Shown piece after piece: positions 1 to 17,044 of a stretch of 21,031 bases of DNA (within the stretch, counting starts at the first letter, position 1; every line of letters starts with the position of its first letter). The translations under genes were made by a program, and so were the position numbers. Below the pieces are notes generated by a model that had not been told where the DNA came from, made no database searches, and was given only the letters and a program-made list of their open reading frames with translations. Where the stretch lies: the NCBI GenBank assembly GCA_002297865.1, contig DBKX01000249.1, positions 3,684 to 24,714 of the forward strand, written 5' to 3'. Origin of the DNA: Lachnoclostridium sp. UBA739. GTDB taxonomy: Bacteria > Bacillota_A > Clostridia > Lachnospirales > Lachnospiraceae.

Positions 1-3000
1 GCAGAAAATAAAGAAGAGTTTTGGGATAATATACAGAATAAAATATCATCCATCCGAGAATACCCAAAAAGCCGTAGGGATAAAACGGATTCTTACCTCG
101 ATGGTGAAAAACTGGATGAGGATAATGCGTATCAGATACAGGGATATTTAAATGATATTAGCAGTTTCAATCCAGAATTTTTTGGATTTTCAGAGGCTGA
201 AGGAAGGAAGATTAGTCCATTACATAGGATGTTTCTGGAATGTGCCTGGTATGCCCTTATTGATGCAGGATATGATGAAGATAAAGAACGGGGAAAAGAT
301 ACGATTGTATATGCTGCCAATGCCCAATTAGGTCAGAAACGGTATATGGATCTGATGGAATCTATAGATGGTTCAGGTTTTATCGGAAATGCCAACAGTA
401 TTATGCCGTCACGTCTATCTTTCCGTTTTGATATGACAGGAAAAAGTTCGGTAGTAGATAGTGCGTGTTCATCTAGTCTTCTTGCGGTGAATTATGCATG
501 TGATGATATTCGGGAAGGAAAAACAGATACTGCTGTAGTATGTGGTACTACAATTAACATATTACCAATCGATAAAGAACGTGTTGAGATGCTAGAATCA
601 CCGAGCAGTTCAATACGTCCTTTTGGTGACCATGCAGATGGAACTGTGTGGGGGGAAGGCGTGTGTGCCGTTGTCTTGAAAAATTACAGTAAAGCAGTAG
701 CAGACAACGATCGTGTATATGCAGTAATTAAGGCGAATGGGGCCAATAATGACGGAGCGTCTAATGGTATTACAGCCCCTAATATGTTAAGACAGAAAGA
801 ATTATTTGAACAGGTTTGGGATAAGTTTCACATTGATGTGAATCAGATGAAATATATTGAGGCACATGGAACGGGAACGGAGCTAGGAGATCCAATTGAA
901 GTGAAGAGTCTGGCAAAGGCATTAGCAGCAAGAACCAGTAAAAAGCAGTATTGTGCATTGGGAACCTGTAAGGGGAATATTGGACATATTATTGCCGCTT
1001 CTGGGCTTGCAGGATTGATTAAATGCGCAATGTCCCTTGATAAGGGAGAGATTCCGCCACTCTATCAATTTGAAGCACCGAACCGTCATATCGACTTCAC
1101 ATCCACACCGTTGTATGTATGTGATGAAAAGATTCCGATTTCAGAGGAAGACAACGATTTCCTAATCGGAATAGATAGTTTTGGTATTAGTGGGACGAAT
1201 GTACATATGGTGCTTGGAAAGCCTGAAAACAAGCGTATTCTATCAGAAGAAGAACAATTGTATCGGACAGAAAAACTGAGACAGTATGAACAGAATAGAC
1301 GTAATTTATGGATTGTAGAGGATTTTCAAGCATTAGACGCATGGAATAAGGTGTATCAGTGGGTCGGCGGTAAAGGTAAAAAGTACTACAAAGTCAAAGT
1401 TGCTCCTGAACAGTGGTTTGTTAAGGAACATTGCGTGTTAGGCAAAAAGCTTTATCCAGCATCGAAAGCATTGGAAACCATTTACACGGTAGCTGCAAAT
1501 TATTTAGGGAGTGAACAGGTTGCTATCACGGAATTTCAGGTGATATGTCCATTTGCAGTAGAAAAGGAAACGTATCTTTTAATAGAAGAACAGATAACAG
1601 AAGAAAACAAACTAGAAGTGAAGCTATTCTATGATCACAATCCAGACTCGAAAAATGAGTTTGACCGTGACTGGGTAGAGTTTTCACATGCAAAATGTAT
1701 GCTAGGGCAAAAAGTATTAAAGGACGAGAATCAGTCGATTCTGGAGGCTTTTTCAGGAAAAAGATTTCATGCCAATGATTTTACAAAAGGTAAGATTGTA
1801 TATGGAGATCGTTGGGATTGCGTTACAGGAAAGAAAGAAACTCCGAATGGCAGAAAACTGCTTATTGCATTAGATAAGATTTATCATAGAGATTTAGTGG
1901 GACACAAGCTCCATCCAGCATTAATGGATATGGCTCTAAATGGAATGTCCTTAGAATCAGAGGAAGATTATTTACCATTTTACTTAGAAAAGCTGGAAAT
2001 CACTCGTCCAATACCATCCACTTTTATTAGTACTATTACGAAGAAAGCAGATAAAACGAACGACCAGCTAATTTTCTATGATATTACGTTACATGATGAA
2101 AAGGGTACGTTTGCAGTGATTGAAGATTATGCAGTCAAAAAAGTAAATGGTATCAGAATGTATCGTAATCCAGCAAGCTGCAGATTTGAGTGGAAAAAGT
2201 GTACATGGCAGACTGCGACTAAACAGATGGATTTGGATAATAGTCTATGGCTAAGTCAAACAGATGCGAAATCCTGTTTCGGAGAAGAACTAGAGGGAGC
2301 CATAAGCCAGAACATGATTAAGTTACAATCAATTCAGGAAGAAAAGTCTCAGATTGAGAATCGAATCCGTGAGAAATCAGTGGAAAGCTTGATTCTGGAA
2401 CTTTCCCCACAGAGTGGACTGTCGGACCAGAAAATCTGTATGGAAACATTAGCATTTTTACAGATTGCCATGCAGCAGGATTCCATCAACCAGGTGATTG
2501 TTATTGGGAAAACAGAACCTTTTGAAGAGGATAAAGAACCAGTGCTTACTCCGGTTATGGCGGCAGTTCAAACGTTAGTGAGAAGTGCCAATAATGAAAA
2601 GGGATCGAAAAACAGCAGATTTGTCTGCATAGAGCAAGGTGTTTCGAATTTACTTCTTTTAGACGTACTTCGTAACGGGACGGAAAAAGAAGTTATGGTA
2701 AGAAAGAATGGAGAAATTTTATTACCTGAACTGATTGCCAGTAGCCTCAAAGTACAGGAGGAAATGAATAAGGAACAAGGTGTTTATGTCCTGACAGGTG
2801 GTACAGGTGGTCTTGGTTTGGAACTTGCGAAAAAGCTGATAGAAGAACAACAGACGGTTGTATTAGTGAGTCGACATGCAAAAGAAGATAAGAGACTTAT
2901 AAGTAATTGGAAAGAAGGTCAGAAAGCGCCAGTGTATTATCAGGCAGATGTATCTTCCGAGGGCGATATGCTTAATTTTGAAAGATTCTTACAAGATACA

Positions 3001-4884
3001 TATGGTGAGGATGGTAATATTAAGGCCGTGTATCATCTGGCAGGAATTGCTGACCATAGTTATCTTGCAGATTATCAGTTTGATGAAGCAAGTAAGGTAT
3101 TGAGTCCGAAAATAAATGGAACGAGAAACCTTCTTACTCTTGCGCAAGCGGTACATGCACAGAAGATCGTATTATTTTCTTCTGTATCTGCATTGATTGG
3201 AACACCAGGGCAAAGTGCTTATTCCGCAGCAAGTGCATATCTAGATCAGATAGCGCGTACGCAAAGCAGTGAACAATTAAAAATCATTTCCGTTCAGCTC
3301 CCAGCAGTAGAAGGAGCGGGAATGGCATTTGATAATAAGGCTGATTATGAAACAGCATTTAAGACAATGGAACTAGAAGAGTTTAAGAGAAATCTTTCTT
3401 TTCTCAATTCTTTAGAGGCAGGAGTATACTGTTTTGGACAGCTGAATTATGAGTTCGAAGCAAATTTACTTCTGGCTTGGAATCTGTCAGAGAAAATAAG
3501 GCAGGACATTATAAGAAGAAGCAGAACAAATACCATAACAGAACAACAGAGTCAGCTACTATTAGAAGGACGTGAAGATGGAGCCTATACGGTAACGGAG
3601 AAAGAACTGGCAAAACTTTGGGCGTTTGTTTTAGGCTCAGAACAAGTAGATATTGATAAAGACTTCTTTGATGAAGGCGGTAATTCTATTATGGCGATTT
3701 CCATTGCAAATGCCATAAAAGAAAGTTTTCATAAGCAAGTGGATATCTCTGTGTTATTTCAGAATATGACCGTTCGTGAACTTGCAAAATATCTGGATCA
3801 ACATGCAGAAAATGAAGAAAATAAAATGACAGCAGGGGAAAAGCAGGAGAGCTATGCCCTTTCAGGCGAACAGAAGAGATTGTATGCACTGCAGAATCTG
3901 AAACCAGACAGCATTTTATATAATCTTCCTATTGTATTTGAACTAAGGGGAACGATTATTCCAGATAAAATTGAAGAGGCATTTCGTAAGGTAATAGAGG
4001 TTCAGGATTCATTAAGAACCCAGTATTACGTAGAGCAGGGAGAAGTAAGACAAAGGATTATAGAACAGCCAGAATTTCATATGGAACTAGTAGACATTAG
4101 AGAAGATGCAACGATAGAAGAGGTAAAAGAAAAGATAGCATTCTACAATCAGCCATTTGATCTAGCTAGTGGAATTTTATTAAGAGTAATTTTATTCCGT
4201 AAAAATGAGACGACGGCGTATCTTATGATGAATACACACCATATTGCGGCTGATGGATATTCCATGGCACTGCTTATGAAGAATTTTAAGGAAGCATATC
4301 TGACAGGAGCCTGTGAGCCAATCGAACTACATTATACGGACTTTGCAACCTGGGAACAGGATCGGGAAAACCATGTGTATGAAGAAACAATGAATTATTG
4401 GGTGAATCAGTTCTCAGATAATCTTCCAGTACTGGAACTTCCTTATGATTTCCCATATCCTTCTGTGCGAAGTGAAAAAGGAGCGGTATACCAGTTTAAG
4501 ATTAATGAAACATTATCACAACAGATAGAGCAGGTTGCAAAACAGCACAAAGTGACGGTAAGTCTGTTATGTATTACCTCATTTTCTATTTTACTATCTA
4601 AGCTTTCTTACCAAAGCGACATCATCATTGGAATGCCATATGCAGGAAGAGAGCAGAGGCAGCTGCAGTCTGTTATTGGAATGTTTGTTCATACACTGCC
4701 TATTCGGTTCCAGCTGGGGCAGGAGATTAGTTATCTTGACTTCGTTAGAAATGCTAATGACCGATATTTGGAGGATATGAAATATGCCAATGTCAGTATG
4801 TCAGATATTTTAAGTCAACTGAACATATCCAGAAGTTTAAGTCATAATCCTCTGTATGATGTGATGTTTGCATTTCAGAATTGA
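1..4884 (+). CDS. Hybrid PKS/NRPS megasynthase, KS-DH-KR-ACP-C (5' end outside window, ends at an in-frame TGA)
   Basis: One chain-extension module followed by a condensation domain. The frame is open from base 1, so the start lies upstream; residues are counted from base 1. KS about 1-405: Cys156 (DSACSSSL), His289 (EAHGTGTELGDP) and His329 (GNIGH) are all present, so it should be active. No acyltransferase follows, the trans-AT layout. DH about 460-720: His477 in the HxxxGxxxxP motif and Asp643 (HPALMD), both intact. KR about 730-1150: NADPH loop TGGTGGLG near 933, Ser1061 and Tyr1074 at the expected spacing of 13; there is no A-type Trp and no clear LDD, so stereochemistry is uncertain. 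ACP about 1190-1265: GGNS, Ser1229. C domain from about 1284: HHIAADG with His1413, His1414 and Asp1418. Translation stops at 1627, just after the NPLYDVMF motif, about 100 residues before a C domain normally ends. The missing part follows in the same frame. Expected product: an alpha,beta-unsaturated acyl chain passed to the next amino acid. Confidence 0.93.
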   Translation, partial: AENKEEFWDNIQNKISSIREYPKSRRDKTDSYLDGEKLDEDNAYQIQGYLNDISSFNPEFFGFSEAEGRKISPLHRMFLECAWYALIDAGYDEDKERGKDTIVYAANAQLGQKRYMDLMESIDGSGFIGNANSIMPSRLSFRFDMTGKSSVVDSACSSSLLAVNYACDDIREGKTDTAVVCGTTINILPIDKERVEMLESPSSSIRPFGDHADGTVWGEGVCAVVLKNYSKAVADNDRVYAVIKANGANNDGASNGITAPNMLRQKELFEQVWDKFHIDVNQMKYIEAHGTGTELGDPIEVKSLAKALAARTSKKQYCALGTCKGNIGHIIAASGLAGLIKCAMSLDKGEIPPLYQFEAPNRHIDFTSTPLYVCDEKIPISEEDNDFLIGIDSFGISGTNVHMVLGKPENKRILSEEEQLYRTEKLRQYEQNRRNLWIVEDFQALDAWNKVYQWVGGKGKKYYKVKVAPEQWFVKEHCVLGKKLYPASKALETIYTVAANYLGSEQVAITEFQVICPFAVEKETYLLIEEQITEENKLEVKLFYDHNPDSKNEFDRDWVEFSHAKCMLGQKVLKDENQSILEAFSGKRFHANDFTKGKIVYGDRWDCVTGKKETPNGRKLLIALDKIYHRDLVGHKLHPALMDMALNGMSLESEEDYLPFYLEKLEITRPIPSTFISTITKKADKTNDQLIFYDITLHDEKGTFAVIEDYAVKKVNGIRMYRNPASCRFEWKKCTWQTATKQMDLDNSLWLSQTDAKSCFGEELEGAISQNMIKLQSIQEEKSQIENRIREKSVESLILELSPQSGLSDQKICMETLAFLQIAMQQDSINQVIVIGKTEPFEEDKEPVLTPVMAAVQTLVRSANNEKGSKNSRFVCIEQGVSNLLLLDVLRNGTEKEVMVRKNGEILLPELIASSLKVQEEMNKEQGVYVLTGGTGGLGLELAKKLIEEQQTVVLVSRHAKEDKRLISNWKEGQKAPVYYQADVSSEGDMLNFERFLQDTYGEDGNIKAVYHLAGIADHSYLADYQFDEASKVLSPKINGTRNLLTLAQAVHAQKIVLFSSVSALIGTPGQSAYSAASAYLDQIARTQSSEQLKIISVQLPAVEGAGMAFDNKADYETAFKTMELEEFKRNLSFLNSLEAGVYCFGQLNYEFEANLLLAWNLSEKIRQDIIRRSRTNTITEQQSQLLLEGREDGAYTVTEKELAKLWAFVLGSEQVDIDKDFFDEGGNSIMAISIANAIKESFHKQVDISVLFQNMTVRELAKYLDQHAENEENKMTAGEKQESYALSGEQKRLYALQNLKPDSILYNLPIVFELRGTIIPDKIEEAFRKVIEVQDSLRTQYYVEQGEVRQRIIEQPEFHMELVDIREDATIEEVKEKIAFYNQPFDLASGILLRVILFRKNETTAYLMMNTHHIAADGYSMALLMKNFKEAYLTGACEPIELHYTDFATWEQDRENHVYEETMNYWVNQFSDNLPVLELPYDFPYPSVRSEKGAVYQFKINETLSQQIEQVAKQHKVTVSLLCITSFSILLSKLSYQSDIIIGMPYAGREQRQLQSVIGMFVHTLPIRFQLGQEISYLDFVRNANDRYLEDMKYANVSMSDILSQLNISRSLSHNPLYDVMFAFQN
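4882..4884 (+). other. In-frame TGA splitting one megasynthase gene inside its C domain
   Basis: The codons before and after this TGA are in the same frame, and both sides belong to one condensation domain. Upstream are the HHxxxDG motif, the IGMF motif and NPLYDVMFAFQN. Downstream is the usual closing segment with KFDLTLEI, which also closes the C domain in the protein at 9684-15767 (SKYDLTLEI). Sixty bases separate the stop from the next plausible start, a GTG at 4945. Read through, bases 1-9651 would give one protein of 3216 residues in the window. A single base change from a sense codon, or a sequencing error, explains it most simply. No frameshift is involved. Confidence 0.9.
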
Positions 4885-4944
4885 GAAAGTGATATTGGAA
4901 TTACGGATGTATCAACGCCAGAACTAAGTTTTGAATTAGGCGAT

Positions 4945-7900
4945 GTGATGTGCAACAGTGTTGCCATCCAAAAGGGAATATCTAAATTCGATTTAACCTT
5001 GGAGATAGTTAGGAAAAATGGCGGTTATGAATGTAGTTTTGAATATAATACGGATGTATTTAAGAAGCAGCATGTCAATGATTTTGCAGCTAGTTATGTG
5101 AGCATATTAGAACAAATTACAGAAAATGTAGAAAAGCCAATTGCGGATATTAGTGTAATTGGACAGAAGGATAAAGAACTGATTCTGAATCAGTTTAATG
5201 AGACCGATTGTGAATATAGTGATAAGGAAACCATAATCAGTCTGTTTGAAAAACAAGTGAAATTGAGACCAAAACAGGTTGCTGTTATCACAGATACAGG
5301 TTATCTGACCTATCTGGAACTTAATAAGAAAGCCAATGCAGTTGCTTACAAATTAAGAGAAATTGGAGTCGGACCAGATGACTTTGTTGCGATTATTTGT
5401 CAACGAAGTATTGATATGGAAGTTGGTATATTTGGAATATTAAAGAGTGGTGCAGCCTATGTTCCAATTGCCCAGGACTGTCCTGAAGAAAGACTTCGCT
5501 ACATGCTTTCCGATAGTCAAGCGAAGGCAGTTTTAGTATATAAGGAGATGGATTTCGACTTTGGAACCATTCCATGTTTCAAGATTACAGAGATATCCCA
5601 GAATGGGGTAGATGAAAATCCAGAACAGGTAAACAAGCCGGATGACCTTGCTTATATGATTTATACTTCTGGTACAACTGGAAAACCAAAAGGAGTTATG
5701 TGCCATAATCGAGGGCTTATGAATCGTATTGAATGGATGCATGGCAGATATCCGATTAATAGTGAAGATACGATTTTGCAGAAAACAACCTATACATTCG
5801 ATGTATCTGTTTGGGAAATTATCTGGTGGGCAATTGTTGGAGCAAAAGTTTACATGTTAGTACCAGGCGGAGAAAAAGATCCAGCAAAAATTTGTGAAGC
5901 GATTGAAACTGGACAAGTAACTACCATGCACTTTGTACCATCCATGTTAAAGGCATTCCTGTCGTATCTTGATGCCAATATGGAGGCAATCGATAAAATC
6001 ACGTCATTACGATATGTATTTGCAAGTGGTGAGGCATTGAAGCCAGAAGATGTTAATGAATTTTACAAACAGGTTATACATCGTGGTGTGGAAGCGAAAC
6101 TGGTGAATTTTTATGGGCCAACCGAGGCGGCAATTGATGTAACTTATTACGATTGTCTAGAGCACCAGCCGGTCATTCCAATTGGAAAACCAATAGCAAA
6201 TACCAAGATTTATATTATGAACGGCAATTGCTTATGTCCAATTGGCGTACCAGGGGAACTCTGCATCACTGGTGTTGGTGTTGCAAGAGGATATTGCGGA
6301 ATGGAACAGCTGACAAAAGAAAAATTCGTGAACAATTTGTTTGGCGAAGGAACGTTATATCATACTGGAGATTTGGCAAGATGGATGCCAGATGGAAATA
6401 TTGAATATATGGGCAGAATTGATCAGCAGGTTAAAATACACGGATTTCGAATTGAGTTAGGCGAGATTGAAAAAGTAATCAGGAAGTATCCTTCTGTAAC
6501 AGATGCAGTTGTAATTGCAAAAGATAGTGGAGCGAAAGGAAAATACCTATGTGCTTACGTGATTGGAAATCAGACGATAGATAAGAAAGTACTTCAGGAG
6601 AAAATGAAAGAAGAGCTTCCAGCTTACATGATTCCTTCTGCAATTTTACAGATTGACGAGATACCAGTAACAGCCAACGGAAAGCTCAATCAGAAAGCAT
6701 TACCAGAGGTAACAATAGAAATAGAAACTCATTCAGGTACAGCGAAGACGGAAGAAGAAAAAGTACTTCTTAAGATGGTACATCAAGTACTGGGTCATAA
6801 GAATGTCGGAATCGAAAATGATTTCTTTGAAGTAGGTGGAGATTCCATTAAAGGTATTCAGCTTCAGTCGTATCTGAAACGGGCTAAGTACGAATTGGCA
6901 ATACAGGATATCTATGAATGTTCTAATCTAAGGGAACTGGCACTTCGGTTAAAGAAGACAAAAGGATGCGTTAGTCAGAAAGAAGTAGTAGGAAGTGCAC
7001 CTTTGTTAGAGATTCAGAGAGATTTCTTTGAATATGGACTTAAGAATCCGAACTATTACAATCAGGAAATTGTCTGCACCTGTAAAGAGCGTATACAGGC
7101 TGCAGAGCTTGAGCGTGCATTAAAGCGTCTTGTCGCACATCACGATGCATTGCGTATGATATTTACTGATAAGGAACAGATAAATCGTTCCACTAAAGAG
7201 GAGAATTTATATGGATTTGCTGAGTACCATGTGGTAGACGAGAATCCAGCAGAATGTATTGGAGCGGAACATAAAAAGCTGAATATCTTTGACGGACCAG
7301 TATTTCGTTGTGTCCTTCTTCATCTAAAGGAAGAGGATATCGTTTGTATGATAGCTCATCACCTGATCTGCGATGGTGTGACGTGGAATATTCTAGTGGA
7401 AGATTTGCAAGGATTGTATCTAGAGGAGATGGGAAGGAAACAATATGAACTTCCGCTTAAGACGAATTCTTATCAGGACTGGACAAGAGCGAAAGAAGAG
7501 GAAGCGAAATCGTTAAGAATACAGGAGCAGGCGGCTTACTGGAGAACCGTTTGTAAAGATAACGTTCCAAAACAAAATGAATATACAGTTGGAGAGAGGA
7601 TACTAGTTACCTTTAATCTAAATGAGGATGTAGTGGAACAGGTACAGAAAAATCTGTTTAAGATTAGGTTGTTAACTTGGAATGATGTGCTTCTATTTGC
7701 ATACGCAAGAGCTGCAAAAAGAAATGCTTTCTCATATCCTGAGTGCGTAATGCTAGAATCCCATGGACGTAAAGACAACGAGCTGGATGTTAGCCGTACA
7801 GCAGGATGGTTTACTGTTGTTTATCCGTTCTGTATTCCATATTCTGATAGTCAGTCAGTGGTTAATAATCTGGTTCAGATAAAAGAGGAATTTCACAGAG

Positions 7901-9651
7901 TGCCAGATGAGGGAATCGGGTTTGATATGATTCGTCGAGAGGATAAAACTTTAATACCATCTAATGTAATTATCAATTACATTGGCAATCTTGGACTTGT
8001 AGAAAAAGATAGTCTGTTTAAGATTAGCGATATGATTTATGGGCCATTAATCAACAGTGAGAATAGAGCACTCTATGACATGGAACTGAATGTATTTCAC
8101 ATAGAAAATGCAATGAAGATAAGTCTTGCACATACGTTGGAGTTTACATCCAAACAGATGGAAGTTTTCATGGAAGATTTCAAGGAGAGTATTGAGATTG
8201 CAGCAAAAGAATTAGCAAGTGCAAAAAAAATGAGCACACCACTAGATTATGGATATAATCATTTGACGCTTTCTGAATTAGAGAATATCAAGGCAAAGAA
8301 TAGTAGTGAGATAAGAAAAATTTATGCATTATCACCGATGCAGAAAAACATACTTACAACAGTTTCATTAGGAAAAAATTCAGAATATTATTACGAGAGA
8401 TTTTCATTTAGGATTGCGGAGAAACTAGACCTAGAGAAAATGAGAGAAAGTTTTGAACTACTGGTAAGAGCACACGATGTTTTCAAAACTTCCTTCCACT
8501 ACAAAGGCTTGCAAGAACCAGTGCAAATTGTGTTGGAACAGAGTGAAGTAGATTTCCACATCATAGAAGGCAATCAAACGGTAACACTTGAAGAAATTTT
8601 GGAACAGGATAAGTCAGAAGGCTTTGATTTAGAAGCAGGCAAACTGATTCGAATGACCATTGTTAAGCAAGAGGATGGTAATTACATCATATTCAGTTTT
8701 CATCATATTATTTTAGACGGATGGTGTTTAAGTCTGGTCTTAAATGAATTTTTTGAGAATTACTTTATGCTCCTTGGCGGGATTCATCCGAAAGCACTTC
8801 CAGAGGCTAGTTATTCAGAGTACATAAGGACAAGTTATAAGATTGGAAATAGTGAAGCACTACAGTTCTGGAAAGAAAAACTTAAAGGTATCCAAAGTGG
8901 TCTTGACTTGCCAGTGAAAAAGAAAAATACTGCATCTGAGTATATTCAGGGCAATTATGAAATATCTGTGGATGAAGCTACTGTTGCCAGACTTAGAACT
9001 ATTGCAAATGACTGGCATGTGACAGAAAGTATGGTATTGCAATGTGCATGGGGTATCCTTTTAAGTCAGTTATCTGGAATGGATGATGTGGTATTCGGTT
9101 ATGTCGTATCGGGAAGAGATCCTCGAATTGAAGGAATAAATCAGATGCTCGGGTTATTTATTAATACATTGCCAATGAGTGTAAGGATAGATCCTGATAG
9201 GTCAGTAAGGCAGTTGGTGGAGTATATAAAGGATTATCAGAATGAGGCACAGCAGCACTGCTTCTTATCCATTAGTGATATTGTACAGAAAACTGGCTTA
9301 AATACAGATATTATTGACTATGCAGTTGTCTTTGAGAATTATCCAGTTGTGGGTGAACTTGATTTTTCCAAAAGGGAACAGTCCTATAAAGGATTTACCA
9401 TATCGGATAGCAGGTATTTTGAACAGTCAACATTAGGTTTAAGTTTGAAAGTCATCCCAGGAGATTCATGGATATTGGTATTTAGATTTAATATGGAATT
9501 GTATCTGAAAGATTCCATTGTTTTAATGGGAGAAAAACTAAATCAGATTCTTGTTCAGATCTCTGAGATCCCAGAAGTGACACTAGGTGAATTTATAGAT
9601 ACAGAATCAGACCGAATGGACGATTTTAATGATGATTTAGAGTTGGAATAG
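4945..9651 (+). CDS. NRPS, [C end]-A(Ser)-PCP-E-C, continuation of the frame before the TGA
   Basis: Adds one residue, probably D-serine. The GTG at 4945 (residue 1, directly followed by ATG) is only the first possible restart after the TGA; its Shine-Dalgarno is weak (AGG at 4938-4940), and the homologous frame extends back to 4885. Residues 1-85 complete the split C domain. A about 95-590: YTSGTTGKPKG, FYGPTEAA, YHTGDLARW, final Lys in TANGK. Pocket residues by alignment to GrsA read D-V-W-H-F-S-F-I-D-K, very close to known serine codes. PCP about 602-672 with GGDSI, Ser634, the variant usual before epimerases. E about 681-1100: His805, His806 and Asp810 in AHHLICDG, plus RTAGWFTVVYP and INYIG. 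C about 1124-1556: HHIILDG with His1253, His1254 and Asp1258, expected to take a D-residue donor. It ends with an acidic tail (DDFNDDLELE) that may dock onto the next protein, 32 bases downstream. Probably one protein with the preceding frame if the TGA is an error. Confidence 0.88.
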   Translation: MMCNSVAIQKGISKFDLTLEIVRKNGGYECSFEYNTDVFKKQHVNDFAASYVSILEQITENVEKPIADISVIGQKDKELILNQFNETDCEYSDKETIISLFEKQVKLRPKQVAVITDTGYLTYLELNKKANAVAYKLREIGVGPDDFVAIICQRSIDMEVGIFGILKSGAAYVPIAQDCPEERLRYMLSDSQAKAVLVYKEMDFDFGTIPCFKITEISQNGVDENPEQVNKPDDLAYMIYTSGTTGKPKGVMCHNRGLMNRIEWMHGRYPINSEDTILQKTTYTFDVSVWEIIWWAIVGAKVYMLVPGGEKDPAKICEAIETGQVTTMHFVPSMLKAFLSYLDANMEAIDKITSLRYVFASGEALKPEDVNEFYKQVIHRGVEAKLVNFYGPTEAAIDVTYYDCLEHQPVIPIGKPIANTKIYIMNGNCLCPIGVPGELCITGVGVARGYCGMEQLTKEKFVNNLFGEGTLYHTGDLARWMPDGNIEYMGRIDQQVKIHGFRIELGEIEKVIRKYPSVTDAVVIAKDSGAKGKYLCAYVIGNQTIDKKVLQEKMKEELPAYMIPSAILQIDEIPVTANGKLNQKALPEVTIEIETHSGTAKTEEEKVLLKMVHQVLGHKNVGIENDFFEVGGDSIKGIQLQSYLKRAKYELAIQDIYECSNLRELALRLKKTKGCVSQKEVVGSAPLLEIQRDFFEYGLKNPNYYNQEIVCTCKERIQAAELERALKRLVAHHDALRMIFTDKEQINRSTKEENLYGFAEYHVVDENPAECIGAEHKKLNIFDGPVFRCVLLHLKEEDIVCMIAHHLICDGVTWNILVEDLQGLYLEEMGRKQYELPLKTNSYQDWTRAKEEEAKSLRIQEQAAYWRTVCKDNVPKQNEYTVGERILVTFNLNEDVVEQVQKNLFKIRLLTWNDVLLFAYARAAKRNAFSYPECVMLESHGRKDNELDVSRTAGWFTVVYPFCIPYSDSQSVVNNLVQIKEEFHRVPDEGIGFDMIRREDKTLIPSNVIINYIGNLGLVEKDSLFKISDMIYGPLINSENRALYDMELNVFHIENAMKISLAHTLEFTSKQMEVFMEDFKESIEIAAKELASAKKMSTPLDYGYNHLTLSELENIKAKNSSEIRKIYALSPMQKNILTTVSLGKNSEYYYERFSFRIAEKLDLEKMRESFELLVRAHDVFKTSFHYKGLQEPVQIVLEQSEVDFHIIEGNQTVTLEEILEQDKSEGFDLEAGKLIRMTIVKQEDGNYIIFSFHHIILDGWCLSLVLNEFFENYFMLLGGIHPKALPEASYSEYIRTSYKIGNSEALQFWKEKLKGIQSGLDLPVKKKNTASEYIQGNYEISVDEATVARLRTIANDWHVTESMVLQCAWGILLSQLSGMDDVVFGYVVSGRDPRIEGINQMLGLFINTLPMSVRIDPDRSVRQLVEYIKDYQNEAQQHCFLSISDIVQKTGLNTDIIDYAVVFENYPVVGELDFSKREQSYKGFTISDSRYFEQSTLGLSLKVIPGDSWILVFRFNMELYLKDSIVLMGEKLNQILVQISEIPEVTLGEFIDTESDRMDDFNDDLELE

Positions 9652-9683: not shown

Positions 9684-12600
9684 ATGTATACATTAAAAAA
9701 ATTGCTAAAGGATAGTTTTTTACAGAATAAAGAGAAGATTGCAATTAGTACGCAGGCCTATCAGATTACCTATCAGACATTAGAGTTCAGAGCAGATGCC
9801 ATAGGTCATAAGATCGAGCGGGCTGGTATAAAAGAACAAAGCTGTGTAGCGTGTATCTCCCATCAGGTGGAACACTATATTTACGTACTAATGGCATGCG
9901 TTAAATACAATCTTGTATTTATGCCAGTCAGTGCCAAATTTCCACACGACAGGTGCTTGGAAATGCTTAAGGAATCAGAGGCCAGTGTTATTGTGTGCGA
10001 CAGTAACCTAAATGATGAGGTAGACGGTTTCATTAGAGAACTAAAAACTCCTGTGAAGAGGTTGGAGATCGAACAGGCAGTGATTCCAGCAGATACACCA
10101 TCAGCATGGAAAGAGGCAGCTGATACTGCTCGCTCATATATTTACTTCACATCGGGAAGTCAAGGAAAGCCTAAGGGCATTGTGGGACAGGTAAAGGGAA
10201 TTGCACAGTTTATTACTTGGGAAGCAGAAACATTTGCAACAGACATTAGCGTACGTGTAGCACAAGTCACACCGCCTTGTCATGACCCGTTTTTGAGAGA
10301 TGTTTTATTGCCTCTTCACACTGGTGGGACAATCTGTATTCCTGAGAATGATAGGATGTTACTTGACTCACAGGAACTTGCCAAGTGGATGGAGAAAGAG
10401 AAGGTTACGTTATTACATTGTACGCCGAGTATGTTTCAGATCCTGTCTGCTGTTCCAGTAACAAAAAACAGTTTTCCAGATCTGCAAGTGATACTGCTTG
10501 CAGGAGAACTGTTAAAGCCAAATTGTATTAAAAACTGGTTTTCACTATTCCATGACAGAATGAAGTTTGTAAATCTGTATGGACCTACAGAAACAACACT
10601 GGCTAAACTTTTTCATATCATCAAAGAAAGTGATTTGGAAAGAAATGTGATTCCAGTTGGGAACACTATTCCTGGTGCAAGAGCGCTGGTTGTTTCAGAA
10701 GGCGGAAGAATATGCCGGACAGGACAAATGGGGGAAGTATGGATAAGAACACCATACCGTACATTAGGATACATTGCGAAAGAGATAAATGCAGATAAGT
10801 TTATACAAAATCCATTTAACAGTAAACCAGGTGATATCGTTTATAAAACTGGAGACCTTGGAAAATGGCTGGAAAATGATGAAATCGAATTATTAGGCCG
10901 TATTGACAGACAAGTAAAATTAAGAGGACACAGAATTGAATTAAGTGAAGTGGAAGCAGCACTTCAGGAATACGAAGGTGTGGAACAGGCAGCTGTAATT
11001 TATCTGGAAGAGCGCGAGACATTGTATGGATTTGTGCAAAGTACAAATGAAGGCGAAGATATAGAGGAAACGGAAATCTTATCATTTATCCGATCCAAGC
11101 TTCCAGATTATATGACTCCAGAGGTGATTAAGGTCCTTACAAGTTTACCGATTAATATGAATGCTAAACTTGATTATGGGAAGTTAAAAGAACTTGCAAA
11201 TAAGGACAAGCGAGAAATAATTGAGCCGGTAACACCTTTGGAAAAGCAGTTGAGTGAGATTTGTAAGAATATTTTTTCATGTTCAGAAGTCAGTATGGAA
11301 GATACCCTGTTTCGCATTGGTGCCAATTCGGTTAATATTCTACGGCTTGTAAATGAAGTAAATAGCCAGACCAACAGCCAGTTCACGTTATTTGATATTT
11401 TTGAAAACCGAAACAGAACGATACGTGAGTTAGCTGACGTTATTGAGAAAAATCGAGAAGCAGGTCATTCAAAGGTTACAATAACAAAAGCAGAACCAAA
11501 AGAATATTATAAAGCGGTACCAGAACAGCGGAGAATTTTTGTTCTGCAAAATATGGACAAGGAAAGCACAAACTATAATATAACTCGTGCCATTCAAGTA
11601 AAAGGAAGTATTACGAACCAGGAAATAGTGGAACAGGCAGAAACATTCTTACAGCGGTATGAATTGTTTCAAATTACCTTTCAGCAATTAGACAACGAAA
11701 TCGTACAAAGAGTAGGTAATTTTAGAATCAAGGCTGAAAGAATTTATTGCAAGGAAAAGGAAGTCACAGCATGTATCCATCGTTTTCGAAGACCTTTTGA
11801 CTTAGAGCAGGAACCTGGTATTCGGCTCGGATTAATCGAAACAGATAAGGATAACCGAATTCTGGTAGTTGATGTACATCATATCATTCTGGATGGACAT
11901 TCCATAAACAGATTGATACAGAAATTCTGTCTTTTCCTATCTGGAGTGGAAGGACAGAAAGAAAAAGTTACCTATTTGGATTATGCGGTATGGGTCAATG
12001 AGAATGAAGGGAAAAAGGCAAGAAATGAATCTTTAGCCTACTGGAAAGAAAAGTTTCGTGTGGTGCCGGAGCCGGTTATGCCTTACTGCATAAAAAAACG
12101 TCCATCTGTGTTCACTTATCGAGGAATGAAAGAGAGCATGCGGATATCATCTAAGATAAAAGAAGGGATTGTAAGACTGGCAAAAGAAAACAATACAACG
12201 GAGTTTGCTATACTGACTACCGCATTTGTCCTTTTACTAGAAAAATATACATTACAGAATGACATTACAATTGGGACCGTTACCAATGGAAGAGTCTGCG
12301 ATGAGATTAAGGATACCCTTGGGATGTTTGTAAAAACACTGCCTTTAAGAATTCAAATTGACCAAGAAAATACATTAGATCAGGTCATTACGCATGTAAA
12401 TGAAGTCTTGGGTGAGGCATATGAACATCAGGCAATATCATTCGAAGAACTCCTAGAAGAATTAGGTGTGGAACGAGATATGAGTCGTAATCCACTGTTT
12501 GATTACATGATTGTCATGCAGGAAGACAGAGAGGAAGAAACGGTCATAAACGGAACAGAATGGGCTTTGTATCCATACGATGATTTAAGCTCCAAATATG

Positions 12601-15600
12601 ATTTGACTTTAGAGATTCGAAGTACTGAGGAAGAATATCTGTGTGTTTTTGAATATTGTACGGATATTTTTGATGCAGGAACAATTGAGCTTTTGAAGCA
12701 GCATTTTGTCAATCTATTAGGAGAGATGATAGAAGGGGAAAGGAAACCAGTAAATCGAATTCGAATGGTATCCGATGAAGAGCAACAAAAAATTCTTTCC
12801 TATTCTCAGATGATGCATTTAGACAATAAGCCTGCAAATGCGGTGGAACAGTTTAGAAAAGAGGCTCAAACTTGTCAAGAACAGGTAGCTGTCATAGAAG
12901 ATGATAGGAAACTAACCTATCAGGAATTGGAACAAAAGTCTGACAGACTGGCTGGATATTTACTAGCTCATCACATAGAGGAAGGGGAACGGGTTGGAAT
13001 TTACGGTTCCCATTCCATTGAAATGATTGTAGGAATTCTTGCAGTCCTAAAATGTAAGGCGGCCTATGTACCGATAGATTCACAGCTTCCAGAAGAAAGA
13101 ATCCAGTACATATTAGAGGATAGTAAGGCTAGATTTCTATTGTCAGATGGAACAGGCAGTTATACATGGGAAGAAGGAACTGTACTGGACATATCTCAGA
13201 CCATGACCCTGGATATTGAGACAGTGCCTATGGATACACAGGACATAAGCCAGAAGATCGCCTATATCATATATACATCAGGAAGTACAGGAAAGCCAAA
13301 AGGGGTTCAGATGACCCATCAAAACCTGATGACGTACATCAAAGCATTTAGGGAATATGTGATAGACAAGCAACCGTTTGTGATGACACAAATGGCATCT
13401 ATCTCATTTGACGTTTCAATAGAAGAAATATTCGGAACCCTTCTTAATGGTGGGACTCTTATTCTCATAAAAAGAGAGCAGATGCTTGATTTAAAAGTAT
13501 TCCAGCAAATAGTAGAAGAACATCAAGTGGATTATGTCAGTGCATCACCAGCATTTGCAAGTGTACTCAACAAATGTGAGAATTCTTTGCCAATACGGAC
13601 CATGATTGTTGGAGGAGAAAATGTATTACCTCATTATGTGGATCATTTATCCGATTCCATGCACATCATCAATTCATATGGTCCAACGGAAACCTGTGTT
13701 GGTGCAACCTACTGTGTATTTGATAAAAATGTTCATAGTACAGATTTTCCAATTGGAAAGCCATTGCCAGGATACAATGTTTATATATTGAATGGGTACG
13801 ATGCGGTATGCGGATTTCAGACAATTGGTGAGATTTGTATCTCAGGAAAATGTGTATCAGAAGGCTATGTGGATTCAGCATTAAACGAAGGGCATTTTTG
13901 TATAGACAAATTAACTGGAGAGCGAATGTACCGAAGTGGAGACCTTGGGTACATGAATCTGGATGGACAGATAGAATTTGTAGCCAGAAAGGATAATCAG
14001 GTAAAAGTAAGAGGATATCGAATTGAGTGTGATGAAATTATACAAAATGCCATCGCATCAGGTCTGGTAGAAGATATGGTGGTAGAGGTATATGAAAATG
14101 AAGCAGGCGTAAAGCAATTATGTGCAGCATATACCAGTCCTGCCGATGTAGAAGAAAAATTGAGAGAGGTGTTGAGTAAAAAGCTACCAGCCTATATGGT
14201 TCCAGACATCATGATTCGCCTCGATACCATACCGATTACCCAAAATGGAAAAACCGATAGTAACAAAATAAAAGAACTGATACAAAAAAAGGCACCAAAG
14301 AAGCTTATAAAATATCCAGTAACGAAGCAGGAAAAGGAACTTGCAGCTATCTGGTCAAAGATTTTAAAGAAAGAGGATATTTCCATACAGGAAAATTTCT
14401 GGTCAGCTGGTGGCAATTCCATATTAGCATTGAGTATGATATCAGAAGCATTAAATGCAGGATTTCAGTTCACCATTAAGGATTTATTTGCTAACCTTAC
14501 ACTAGAGGAACTGGCAAGAAAGCAGCAAACAGAACATATACCGTCGGTTGGTCAGGTTGAGGAAGATAAGCCGCTAGAGGAAACGATTTCCGTAGCAGAA
14601 CAAGTGAAGCTCTTCCGAGAAAAGTTTCCTAGAACTACAGTGGAAAGCAGAGAGGTAAGACCATCATTTGTGCAAATGTTTTACCTTGGATTGAATCCAC
14701 AGTACATAAGTGATGTTGTTACAATAAAAGGAGATTACACTGGGGATCAGATAAGGAGTGCAGTAGAAATACTGATTAAAAATCAAGAACAGCTGCGATG
14801 TGGATATGAAATAAATAGCGCAGAAGATATTCGGTTAAAGGTATATCAGTACAAAGAGAATAGAATTTTTATTCCGTATCTGGATATCAGTTCTTATACA
14901 AAAGAGGAACAGAATCACCATATCAAAGCAGTAAAACAAACCCTGAAGGTTTCAAGAATGGACGTAGATTTACCGTATTGTTTGTTTGTTGTGAAGATGG
15001 AACAAGATGTATTTCATATCTATATTGATATTCAGCATGCATTTTATGATATGTTCTCTAATTTCGTAGTGAAGGAAGAGATTGTGAAAACGCTAAGTGG
15101 AAACAGTGCGTTTGGCGATGCCGAAAAATCAGAAGTAAAAATGGATAAGAATGACAGTAAGAATAAGGAAAACAATGTCCGAGAGCATTTTCAACTGGAT
15201 AGATTTTTTAAGGCATCCAATACACTTCGCAAGTTAACAAAGATTTATCCTAAGGAGTATACGAGGCTAACGAAAGAATACAGTATAGAAGCAGGCATCA
15301 GTGAAAAGGAAATCATGTACAAAAGTTACGAGCTGGCACTAGATTATCTGTTTGATTTGTTTGAAACGGAAGAGCTTCCTACATGGTTCATTTTCCATGG
15401 AAGGAAGGAACAGGATTATCAGAAGATAGGAGCCTATCTTGATATGATCCCACTTTTGGTTGATAGAAAACAAAAAGAAGTTGCTCTGAAGCTATTAGAA
15501 CAGAATCTAGAATATGTAAAACAGGAGCAGATCAACATAGCAGATACATTATTAGCAGAAGAAACAACAGAAAAACAAGATGTCAGTCAGTTAAGAAAAA

Positions 15601-15767
15601 TGATGAAAGAACAGTTTATTGTAATGAATTATCAAGGAGAACAAGAAGCATCAGAACAAGAGCAACAGCGGATGCAGTCTTTAGACGTTCCCATTTATAT
15701 GGCAGTAATGAGATATAAGAAGGATAAGATATACATAACATACGTAATGCCAGTAAACCCAGAGTAG
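9684..15767 (+). CDS. Two-module NRPS, A-PCP-C-A-PCP-C*, with divergent terminal condensation-like domain
   Basis: Starts directly with an A domain; its C partner is the last domain of the preceding protein. A1 about 3-510: FTSGSQGKPKG, LYGPTETT, YKTGDLGKW and NAKLD with the catalytic Lys. Its substrate loop reads HDPFLRD instead of the usual FDxSxxE, and the pocket D-P-R-H-L-A-L-L-A-K matches no code I know. PCP1: GANS, Ser549. C about 610-1045: HHIILDG with His732, His733 and Asp737, and MSRNPLFDYM. A2 about 1053-1535: YTSGSTGKPKG, SYGPTETC, YRSGDLGYM, TQNGK; pocket D-V-E-S-I-G-S-V-G-K, where Glu suggests a basic residue such as Lys or Orn (low confidence). PCP2: GGNS, Ser1579. Residues about 1643-2027 are a C/E-family domain with QHAFYDM where HHxxxDG is expected: the second His (1785) and the Asp (1789) remain, while the first His and the Gly are lost. 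There is no thioesterase or reductase, so the chain must be passed on, presumably to the protein at 17064. Confidence 0.93.
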   Translation: MYTLKKLLKDSFLQNKEKIAISTQAYQITYQTLEFRADAIGHKIERAGIKEQSCVACISHQVEHYIYVLMACVKYNLVFMPVSAKFPHDRCLEMLKESEASVIVCDSNLNDEVDGFIRELKTPVKRLEIEQAVIPADTPSAWKEAADTARSYIYFTSGSQGKPKGIVGQVKGIAQFITWEAETFATDISVRVAQVTPPCHDPFLRDVLLPLHTGGTICIPENDRMLLDSQELAKWMEKEKVTLLHCTPSMFQILSAVPVTKNSFPDLQVILLAGELLKPNCIKNWFSLFHDRMKFVNLYGPTETTLAKLFHIIKESDLERNVIPVGNTIPGARALVVSEGGRICRTGQMGEVWIRTPYRTLGYIAKEINADKFIQNPFNSKPGDIVYKTGDLGKWLENDEIELLGRIDRQVKLRGHRIELSEVEAALQEYEGVEQAAVIYLEERETLYGFVQSTNEGEDIEETEILSFIRSKLPDYMTPEVIKVLTSLPINMNAKLDYGKLKELANKDKREIIEPVTPLEKQLSEICKNIFSCSEVSMEDTLFRIGANSVNILRLVNEVNSQTNSQFTLFDIFENRNRTIRELADVIEKNREAGHSKVTITKAEPKEYYKAVPEQRRIFVLQNMDKESTNYNITRAIQVKGSITNQEIVEQAETFLQRYELFQITFQQLDNEIVQRVGNFRIKAERIYCKEKEVTACIHRFRRPFDLEQEPGIRLGLIETDKDNRILVVDVHHIILDGHSINRLIQKFCLFLSGVEGQKEKVTYLDYAVWVNENEGKKARNESLAYWKEKFRVVPEPVMPYCIKKRPSVFTYRGMKESMRISSKIKEGIVRLAKENNTTEFAILTTAFVLLLEKYTLQNDITIGTVTNGRVCDEIKDTLGMFVKTLPLRIQIDQENTLDQVITHVNEVLGEAYEHQAISFEELLEELGVERDMSRNPLFDYMIVMQEDREEETVINGTEWALYPYDDLSSKYDLTLEIRSTEEEYLCVFEYCTDIFDAGTIELLKQHFVNLLGEMIEGERKPVNRIRMVSDEEQQKILSYSQMMHLDNKPANAVEQFRKEAQTCQEQVAVIEDDRKLTYQELEQKSDRLAGYLLAHHIEEGERVGIYGSHSIEMIVGILAVLKCKAAYVPIDSQLPEERIQYILEDSKARFLLSDGTGSYTWEEGTVLDISQTMTLDIETVPMDTQDISQKIAYIIYTSGSTGKPKGVQMTHQNLMTYIKAFREYVIDKQPFVMTQMASISFDVSIEEIFGTLLNGGTLILIKREQMLDLKVFQQIVEEHQVDYVSASPAFASVLNKCENSLPIRTMIVGGENVLPHYVDHLSDSMHIINSYGPTETCVGATYCVFDKNVHSTDFPIGKPLPGYNVYILNGYDAVCGFQTIGEICISGKCVSEGYVDSALNEGHFCIDKLTGERMYRSGDLGYMNLDGQIEFVARKDNQVKVRGYRIECDEIIQNAIASGLVEDMVVEVYENEAGVKQLCAAYTSPADVEEKLREVLSKKLPAYMVPDIMIRLDTIPITQNGKTDSNKIKELIQKKAPKKLIKYPVTKQEKELAAIWSKILKKEDISIQENFWSAGGNSILALSMISEALNAGFQFTIKDLFANLTLEELARKQQTEHIPSVGQVEEDKPLEETISVAEQVKLFREKFPRTTVESREVRPSFVQMFYLGLNPQYISDVVTIKGDYTGDQIRSAVEILIKNQEQLRCGYEINSAEDIRLKVYQYKENRIFIPYLDISSYTKEEQNHHIKAVKQTLKVSRMDVDLPYCLFVVKMEQDVFHIYIDIQHAFYDMFSNFVVKEEIVKTLSGNSAFGDAEKSEVKMDKNDSKNKENNVREHFQLDRFFKASNTLRKLTKIYPKEYTRLTKEYSIEAGISEKEIMYKSYELALDYLFDLFETEELPTWFIFHGRKEQDYQKIGAYLDMIPLLVDRKQKEVALKLLEQNLEYVKQEQINIADTLLAEETTEKQDVSQLRKMMKEQFIVMNYQGEQEASEQEQQRMQSLDVPIYMAVMRYKKDKIYITYVMPVNPE

Positions 15768-15823: not shown

Positions 15824-17044
15824 ATGAATAGGTTTGGATTTAAAAAAGTTCCGAAAGTAGTATGGGGAATATTCCTTGTTACTTTAGTTGTAAACTGTGG
15901 AAACTATATGGCACAGTTTATGTCAATTTTCTTTACTAACAAGTTGGGGATTAAACCTAACTATTCGGGAATCTATGTGTCGTTGGCAGGAATGGCATTT
16001 CTTCCAGGCTCATTAGCAGGGGGAAAGTTAAGTGATGTATGGGGAAAGAAAAAGGTATTTCTTACCTTTCAAGGATTGGAAATTATTGTAACAATTCTTA
16101 ATATGTTTATTTTTTCGAAAACGGTGACCCCAATTTTATTCATACTCAATGCCTTATTTGTTGCAGCGACAATACCAGTTTATAATTCCACTATTTTTGA
16201 AGTTTCTGATAATGATAATAAAAAGGATTGTCTGTCACTGTTCTTTGTGGGGACGAATATGGGAAATATGGTATCTAGCATTGTAGGTGCAGCATTTTTC
16301 TCGAAACATTACCAGCTATTGTTTGGTGTTGAGGTAATTATGAAGATATTATCTCTTATCATTTTTGGTTTTTTAGTAAATTACGATGCCCCTCAGAAAC
16401 CGCAACAGATAGAAAAAAAAGAGGAAGCACAAAAGGAAAAGTCAGAAAGTTTATGGAGTGTTTTATTCAAATACCCAACACTGCTTTTATTCAGCTTATC
16501 CTGTTGCTTGTTTTCTATTATTCTTTCTCAGAACACTTATGCACTTCCAATTCATCTGGATGCAGTGTTCGGGGATTTGGGAACAAGATATTATGGTATC
16601 GTATTAGGGATTAATGCATTTGTAATTGTAATTGGGACAAGTGTAATTAATAATCTTACGAGAAAGTATTATAAACTGAATCTGCTCTTAATCGCTACCG
16701 CACTGGTCGGATGTGGCTTTGGACTGATTTATTTTGGGCAGTTCTTTGGAATTTATGTGATAACTACCTTGCTGTGGTCATGTTCCGACATCCTAAACAC
16801 ACCAAATTCAAGTGCTTATATTTCGGAGTTTGCGCCACCAGATATGCTAGGAAGATTCGCAGCATGGATAAAAATTGTAACAGGAGCAGGATATGCGATT
16901 GGACCGATAGCAATTGGATTTATCATTGAACATAAGGGAAGCCGAATTGTATTTCCGATTCTATTTGCTATTGCTGTTATCAATTTTATCCTGTTATTGT
17001 TCATCAAGAATATGGAGAAGGCGGAAAACGGAAAAAACCGATGA
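15824..17044 (+). CDS. Major facilitator superfamily transporter, probable product exporter
   Basis: A 406-residue integral membrane protein, the usual size for a 12-helix MFS carrier. Hydrophobic segments run along the whole chain, beginning near residues 12-33. The family signature (motif A) is seen at about 66-77 as GGKLSDVWGKKK between the second and third helices. A charged central loop (QQIEKKEEAQKEKSES, around 195-212) separates the two six-helix halves. No signal peptide or extra domain is seen. The ATG at 15824 is chosen because of the AGGAGG in front of it. The gene lies 56 bases after the NRPS and 19 bases before the next PKS/NRPS gene, so it is co-transcribed with them. Export of the finished compound, giving self-protection, is the likely role, by analogy with other biosynthetic clusters; the transported substrate cannot be read from the sequence. 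It ends at an ordinary TGA. Confidence 0.9.
   Translation: MNRFGFKKVPKVVWGIFLVTLVVNCGNYMAQFMSIFFTNKLGIKPNYSGIYVSLAGMAFLPGSLAGGKLSDVWGKKKVFLTFQGLEIIVTILNMFIFSKTVTPILFILNALFVAATIPVYNSTIFEVSDNDNKKDCLSLFFVGTNMGNMVSSIVGAAFFSKHYQLLFGVEVIMKILSLIIFGFLVNYDAPQKPQQIEKKEEAQKEKSESLWSVLFKYPTLLLFSLSCCLFSIILSQNTYALPIHLDAVFGDLGTRYYGIVLGINAFVIVIGTSVINNLTRKYYKLNLLLIATALVGCGFGLIYFGQFFGIYVITTLLWSCSDILNTPNSSAYISEFAPPDMLGRFAAWIKIVTGAGYAIGPIAIGFIIEHKGSRIVFPILFAIAVINFILLLFIKNMEKAENGKNR

What the first reader, a model, noticed from the sequence alone, without database searches (positions are those of the whole stretch)
4882..4884. In-frame TGA cuts a megasynthase gene in the last quarter of a C domain
Both flanks are in one frame and together make one condensation domain, with the closing KFDLTLEI segment after the stop. 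Either this is a nonsense mutation or read error that would end the pathway, or the domain works as two polypeptides with restart at GTG 4945, or the stop is read through. Both sides look intact and free of decay, which argues for a recent change or an error.
Basis: partly seen in the sequence, partly recalled or inferred. Interest (0 to 1): 0.7.

Follow-up and report, generated by a model that had tools for sequence, protein, structure and literature searches.

The report
Nonsense codon in a PKS-NRPS gene
A single stop codon interrupts a very large gene for making a small molecule; the nearest counterpart found in another bacterium is one unbroken gene, so this is most likely an ordinary disabling mutation (or a read error) rather than a new way of building the enzyme.

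Summary
TGA 4882-4884 is the only in-frame stop between base 1 and the TAG at 9649-9651. The two sides make one condensation (C) domain: Pfam 1-358 of 456 upstream, closing segment downstream. The nearest counterpart, in Eubacterium sp. 14-2, has the same gene order and is one open frame of 3301 codons, aligning at 42% and 49% identity to the two pieces, with one sense codon opposite the TGA and no gap. The column is variable in C domains (18 residues in 353 matches; no Cys, no Trp, no chain ending there). Restart sites GTG 4945 and ATG 4948 have only background Shine-Dalgarno pairing, unlike the next three genes. No recoding structure was found, and the other coding codons hold no TGA. Neither piece appears among the listed database hits, although a 99.5% identical neighbouring transporter does. 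Best reading: a recent private nonsense substitution that ends the synthetase inside its first C domain and inactivates the assembly line. A consensus error is the main rival. Productive split or read-through is unlikely but not excluded. Ordinary; low interest.

The parts
1..4881 (+). Upstream piece of the interrupted megasynthase gene: KS - DH - KR - ACP - first 78% of a C domain (5' end cut by the window)
3841..4881 (+). N-terminal 347 residues of the C domain, with HHIAADG motif
4882..4884 (+). In-frame TGA, directly after FQN, at the start of the variable stretch before KFDLTLEI
4885..9648 (+). Downstream piece: end of the C domain - A - T - C-family domain (epimerase-like, inferred from its motif) - C; open to TAG 9649-9651
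4945..4950 (+). Candidate restart codons GTG 4945 and ATG 4948; background-level Shine-Dalgarno pairing
9684..15767 (+). Next NRPS gene, A-T-C-A-T with a C-terminal Condensation-family stretch; counterpart of the 2088-aa gene of Eubacterium sp. 14-2
15824..17044 (+). MFS transporter (406 aa from ATG 15824, which has a strong ribosome site); sister copy P0243 differs at 2 of 406 residues
17064..21029 (+). Next hybrid gene, KS - ... - ACP - C, cut by the window's end

Best explanation
The TGA is a recent, strain-private nonsense substitution in a gene that is otherwise a single unbroken hybrid PKS-NRPS gene of roughly 3,250 codons. Translation ends after the FQN strand of the first C domain. The upstream product lacks the C-terminal part of that domain and the downstream A-T-C-C part is not made efficiently, so the assembly line stops at the PKS-to-NRPS hand-over and the pathway is inactive in this strain. 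Shown: the stop, the single-gene state in the counterpart, motifs present on both sides, and no sign of programmed restart or recoding in the tests made. Inferred: that the stop is in the living strain, that it is recent and private, and that it abolishes product.
For: The Eubacterium sp. 14-2 counterpart is one 3301-codon frame (stop to stop) with no stop at the junction, and has the same neighbours in the same order: 2088-aa NRPS, MFS, 2457-aa hybrid. Its C domain is whole, Pfam 2-454 of 456. In 353 C-domain matches the TGA column holds 18 different residues and no chain ends there (283 distinct contexts). Motifs present on both sides. Deviations at columns conserved to 95% are 2 of 102 in the two pieces together versus 2 of 108 in the counterpart, and at 90% 9 of 161 versus 7 of 167. 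No protein near-identical to either piece is among the 120 hits listed (candidates 895-2847 aa) or the 120 listed (873-2779 aa), where it would have ranked first, although the adjacent transporter has a database copy identical at 404 of 406 residues; an intact product would be longer than both ranges.
Against: No sister DNA at this place could be read, so 'recent' and 'private' rest on indirect evidence. The 2 database contigs with the transporter may not reach this gene. The counterpart is only 42-49% identical, so a split could in principle have arisen on the window's own branch.
Confidence: 0.62

Rival explanations
1. Consensus or read error: the genome has a sense codon and the gene is intact; one wrong base in the assembly, or a minority variant picked by a metagenome assembler, made the TGA.
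For: Only stop in a long frame with otherwise intact sequence; counterpart intact; split pieces not among the listed database hits. The window's transporter also differs from its sister at two residues that most relatives conserve: residue 15 (sister's residue in 6 of the 7 relatives that cover it) and residue 93 (8 of 8).
Against: No frameshift or other premature stop seen in the five coding frames of 21 kb, so the sequence is not generally poor; no excess of odd residues at conserved columns in the interrupted gene.
Confidence: 0.25
2. Productive split: two polypeptides, the second restarted at GTG 4945 or ATG 4948, which reassemble into a working C domain; the stop lies in a variable stretch, so both pieces keep their conserved strands.
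For: The cut falls between FQN and KFDLTLEI, and 60 and 63 bases lie between the TGA and the two restart codons. Both pieces are open with motifs present.
Against: Anti-Shine-Dalgarno pairing at GTG 4945 and ATG 4948 is -1.8 and -2.8 kcal/mol, matched or beaten by 207 and 164 of 372 internal start codons, while the starts at 9684, 15824 and 17064 are matched or beaten by 25, 0 and 10. Counterpart unsplit. No chain ends at the column in 353 matches (this test cannot see chains that begin just after the column). No near-identical separate downstream piece among the 120 listed hits.
Confidence: 0.07
3. Read-through or recoding of the TGA (near-cognate Trp, selenocysteine, or a reassigned code), giving one full-length protein.
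For: Frame and conservation continue across the stop with no gap.
Against: No TGA in any of the 6,977 coding codons counted in the window, with 61 TGG codons, so no reassignment. No unusual structure around or after the TGA (three stretches, z 0.57, 0.22 and 1.03, none better than shuffles), and no Rfam match at gathering threshold. No Cys or Trp at the column in 353 matches.
Confidence: 0.06

Closest known systems
Hybrid PKS-NRPS cluster of Eubacterium sp. 14-2 (NZ_KE159568.1, genes seen at about 387-426 kb; product not known to me)
   Same: Same gene order, same Pfam domain order in the counterpart of the interrupted gene, 41-53% identity by best alignment over the five window pieces
   Different: Counterpart gene is one open frame; no TGA
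NRPS condensation domains, e.g. tyrocidine synthetase 3 (2jgp) and linear gramicidin synthase LgrA (6mfy)
   Same: The upstream piece aligns to both, and upstream and downstream pieces align in order to one LgrA chain; HHxxxDG present
   Different: In LgrA the domain lies on one chain; here a TGA separates the last fifth
Nonsense-type bacterial pseudogenes (e.g. 10.1% of the 227 pseudogenes of Anabaena sp. 90, PMC3542288, three passages seen)
   Same: One premature stop in an otherwise recognisable gene
   Different: Here no second lesion found in the gene; authenticity of the base not verified

Membership tests
Nonsense-interrupted gene (young pseudogene) | Intact orthologous gene in a relative, uninterrupted at this place | tested here: met
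   Eubacterium sp. 14-2 frame of 3301 codons, gapless across the junction
Nonsense-interrupted gene (young pseudogene) | Stop present in the genome, not a consensus error | not testable with these tools
   No reads; no genome held for the window
Nonsense-interrupted gene (young pseudogene) | Stop absent from close sister strains | tested here: inconclusive
   Only indirect: separate pieces not among listed database hits while a 99.5% identical transporter is
Naturally split megasynthase with restart | Own ribosome binding site at the second start | tested here: not met
   Background pairing at GTG 4945 and ATG 4948
Naturally split megasynthase with restart | Split conserved in relatives | tested here: not met
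   Counterpart unsplit; 0 of 353 C-domain matches end at the column. Closer relatives could not be read
Selenoprotein / recoded UGA | Cys (or Sec) in homologues at the column | tested here: not met
   0 Cys in 353
Selenoprotein / recoded UGA | Recoding stem-loop just after the UGA | tested here: not met
   Folding no better than shuffles; no Rfam match
Selenoprotein / recoded UGA | selA/selB/selC in the genome | not testable with these tools
   No genome held for the window
Alternative code with TGA as sense | Many in-frame TGA codons | tested here: not met
   0 TGA in the 6,977 coding codons counted
Trans-AT hybrid PKS-NRPS | KS modules without built-in AT, with a discrete AT in the cluster | tested here: inconclusive
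   No AT domain in the window's Pfam tables; discrete AT seen only in the Eubacterium sp. 14-2 cluster

The most novel reading that the evidence does not exclude
The stop is a fixed, working split in this lineage: the C domain at the PKS-to-NRPS hand-over is built from two chains divided in a variable loop, the second chain being made by weak coupled restart at GTG 4945 or ATG 4948, so that a variable share of the assembly line is completed.
Probability: 0.05. Interest if true: 0.6.

Novelty: new member of a known kind. Interest (0 to 1): 0.13.

Why it matters
If real, it tells cluster miners that this strain probably does not make the product, that a strain with the unbroken gene should be sought, and that gene callers will report two proteins where one is expected. 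It opens no new mechanism unless the split proves conserved in sister strains.

Tried and rejected
Genome of the window: none held. A first scan of the genome collection with the upstream piece found no relative among 11 pattern matches; plasmid records gave no near match to the window DNA; a scan of viral contigs with the transporter alignment found none. The genome scan with the transporter alignment gave one locus, in Eubacterium sp. 14-2. The transporter search at E 1e-50 over 397 genomes of that genome's family gave 2 with a match, itself included, and over 392 of its order 2, itself included, the other at 30%. The downstream-piece search at E 1e-150 over 29 genomes of its genus gave 2, itself included, the other at 31%. 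At E 1e-60 the upstream piece matches G279 (43% transporter) only by KS modules at 33-36%, and G416 not at all.

Structure: a model of the intact C domain of the gene at 9684 (alignment of 5 window sequences) came out at mean pLDDT 62.6 with residues 331-396, which include the stretch after the FQN position, below 50. It says little about the effect of the cut and was not searched against structures. Promoter-like sites near the stop are at chance level, 3 found against 3.1 expected, and no terminator-like site was found.

General decay of the window was tested because the transporter and one KS show odd residues. There is no excess in the interrupted gene. The gene at 9684 has 14 of 122 deviations at 95% against 9 of 118 in its counterpart, and 21 of 167 against 19 of 154 at 90%. 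Only columns with at least 40 aligned rows were counted: none of the transporter's and only 17 of the upstream piece's (95% level), so the test weighs the NRPS domains far more than the PKS part.

Full report
What is there. The window (36-39% GC) holds large hybrid polyketide-peptide synthetase genes on one strand. The first frame is cut by the window's start, encodes KS-DH-KR-ACP-C and ends with TGA at 4882-4884 (codon 1628 counted from base 1). The same frame then stays open for 1588 codons to the TAG at 9649-9651, giving the end of the C domain, A, T, and two more Condensation-family domains, the first epimerase-like by its motif (my reading). Next come a second NRPS gene (9684-15767), an MFS transporter (15824-17044 from its well-placed ATG) and a further KS-ACP-C gene cut by the window's end.

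Is it one gene? The nearest counterpart came through the transporter. A scan of the genome collection with the transporter alignment found one locus, in Eubacterium sp. 14-2 (Clostridia). That genome has the same gene order: a 3301-codon frame, a 2088-aa NRPS gene, an MFS gene of 415 aa and a 2457-aa hybrid gene. The upstream piece aligns over residues 1-1627 to 110-1712 (663 of 1590 aligned residues identical) and the downstream piece over 3-1586 to 1716-3301 (767 of 1571), with a single sense codon opposite the TGA. Its C domain is complete. A metagenome protein of unnamed source, P0059 (KS-containing, 2486 aa), also runs unbroken through the same place with similar following residues, at 38% identity over the upstream part of the domain. 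So the ancestral state best supported is one gene of about 3,250 codons; the exact start is uncertain, since the frame overlaps the preceding gene.

Does anything mark the TGA as programmed? The column was read in the hits plus the counterpart and two window paralogues (243 proteins in all). Of 530 BLAST matches of the upstream C part, 353 in 220 proteins run from query residue 60 or earlier to 340 or later and were kept; the column is placed by counting on from the match end without gaps, so single assignments can be off. It holds 18 different residues, never Cys or Trp, and no chain ends there; 319 chains run on for at least 120 residues and 34 end within 120. Many matches are near-duplicates: 283 distinct contexts. 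The shortest remainder, 4 residues, is the window's own last gene, cut by the window's end, and the next is 47. Such a tolerant column argues against a recoded, conserved residue. The window's five coding stretches hold no TGA in 6,977 codons and 61 TGG codons, so the code is the standard bacterial one. RNA folding around the stop is no better than in shuffles and Rfam has no match at gathering threshold.

Does a restart look likely? Pairing to the ribosomal anti-Shine-Dalgarno was computed at seven start codons and at 372 internal ATG/GTG/TTG codons. GTG 4945 (-1.8 kcal/mol) and ATG 4948 (-2.8) are matched or beaten by 207 and 164 of the 372. The starts at 9684 (-6.2), 15824 (-9.7) and 17064 (-7.0) are matched or beaten by 25, 0 and 10. 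The cut does lie in a variable stretch, so a two-chain domain is not impossible, and coupled restart may need no strong site; that keeps the novel case alive at low probability.

Real or error? Two results bear on this, neither decisive. First, the protein database holds a transporter identical to the window's at 404 of 406 residues (P0243, 7 member sequences, 2 contigs, longest 58,204 bases), so a close sister is represented. Yet no protein near-identical to either separate piece is among the 120 of 125 hits listed (candidates 895-2847 aa; top hit 33%, highest identity listed 36%) or the 120 of 7985 listed (873-2779 aa; highest identity listed 51%, over 41% of the piece); such a protein would have ranked first. 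An unbroken product would be too long for both ranges. This fits sisters with an unbroken gene, but those contigs may not reach this far. Second, the interrupted gene shows no other damage: the motifs looked for are present, and deviations at conserved columns are similar to the counterpart's (2 of 102 against 2 of 108 at 95%; 9 of 161 against 7 of 167 at 90%). The two odd residues of the transporter lean a little towards error; the absence of any frameshift in the coding frames speaks for generally good sequence. I favour a real mutation over an error by about five to two; this weighing is judgement.

Literature. Searches for 'split condensation domain' (0 papers), NRPS with premature stop codon and condensation domain (6 papers), NRPS with stop codon and readthrough (7 papers) and nonsense mutations in clusters (13 papers) were seen as listings with abstract starts only; none of the listed titles or abstract starts describes a programmed stop in a C domain. 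Premature stops as a class of bacterial pseudogene are described in PMC3542288 (three passages seen). PMC7930024, the one paper listed (one passage seen), reports uncharacterised trans-AT PKS lines in gut anaerobes, including a Lachnospiraceae bacterium. 'Eubacterium sp. 14-2' with 'polyketide' gave 0 papers.

Verdict. Observation confirmed; an ordinary nonsense interruption, or failing that a consensus error.

Noticed in passing
window 18078-18080: The KS of the last gene has Gln where the Eubacterium sp. 14-2 counterpart has the first catalytic His (EAQGTGT against EAHGTGT; role of the residue recalled); either a non-elongating KS or a second private change.
   Followed up: partly
window 15824-17044: The transporter belongs to a narrow group: 9 database relatives at 43-100% listed identity, then a drop to 25% or less. 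It differs from its sister P0243 at residues 15 and 93; the latter is Ala in all 8 relatives that cover it.
   Followed up: partly
L018:4620-8595: The Eubacterium sp. 14-2 cluster carries a discrete acyltransferase, a thioesterase, and an ornithine-cyclodeaminase-family plus PLP-enzyme pair, which recalls (from memory) 2,3-diaminopropionate supply genes.
   Followed up: no
window 9684-15767: This gene deviates at 14 of 122 columns conserved to 95%, 10 of them in its first A and T domains; its counterpart deviates at 9 of 118, 7 of them there. That first module may be specialised.
   Followed up: no
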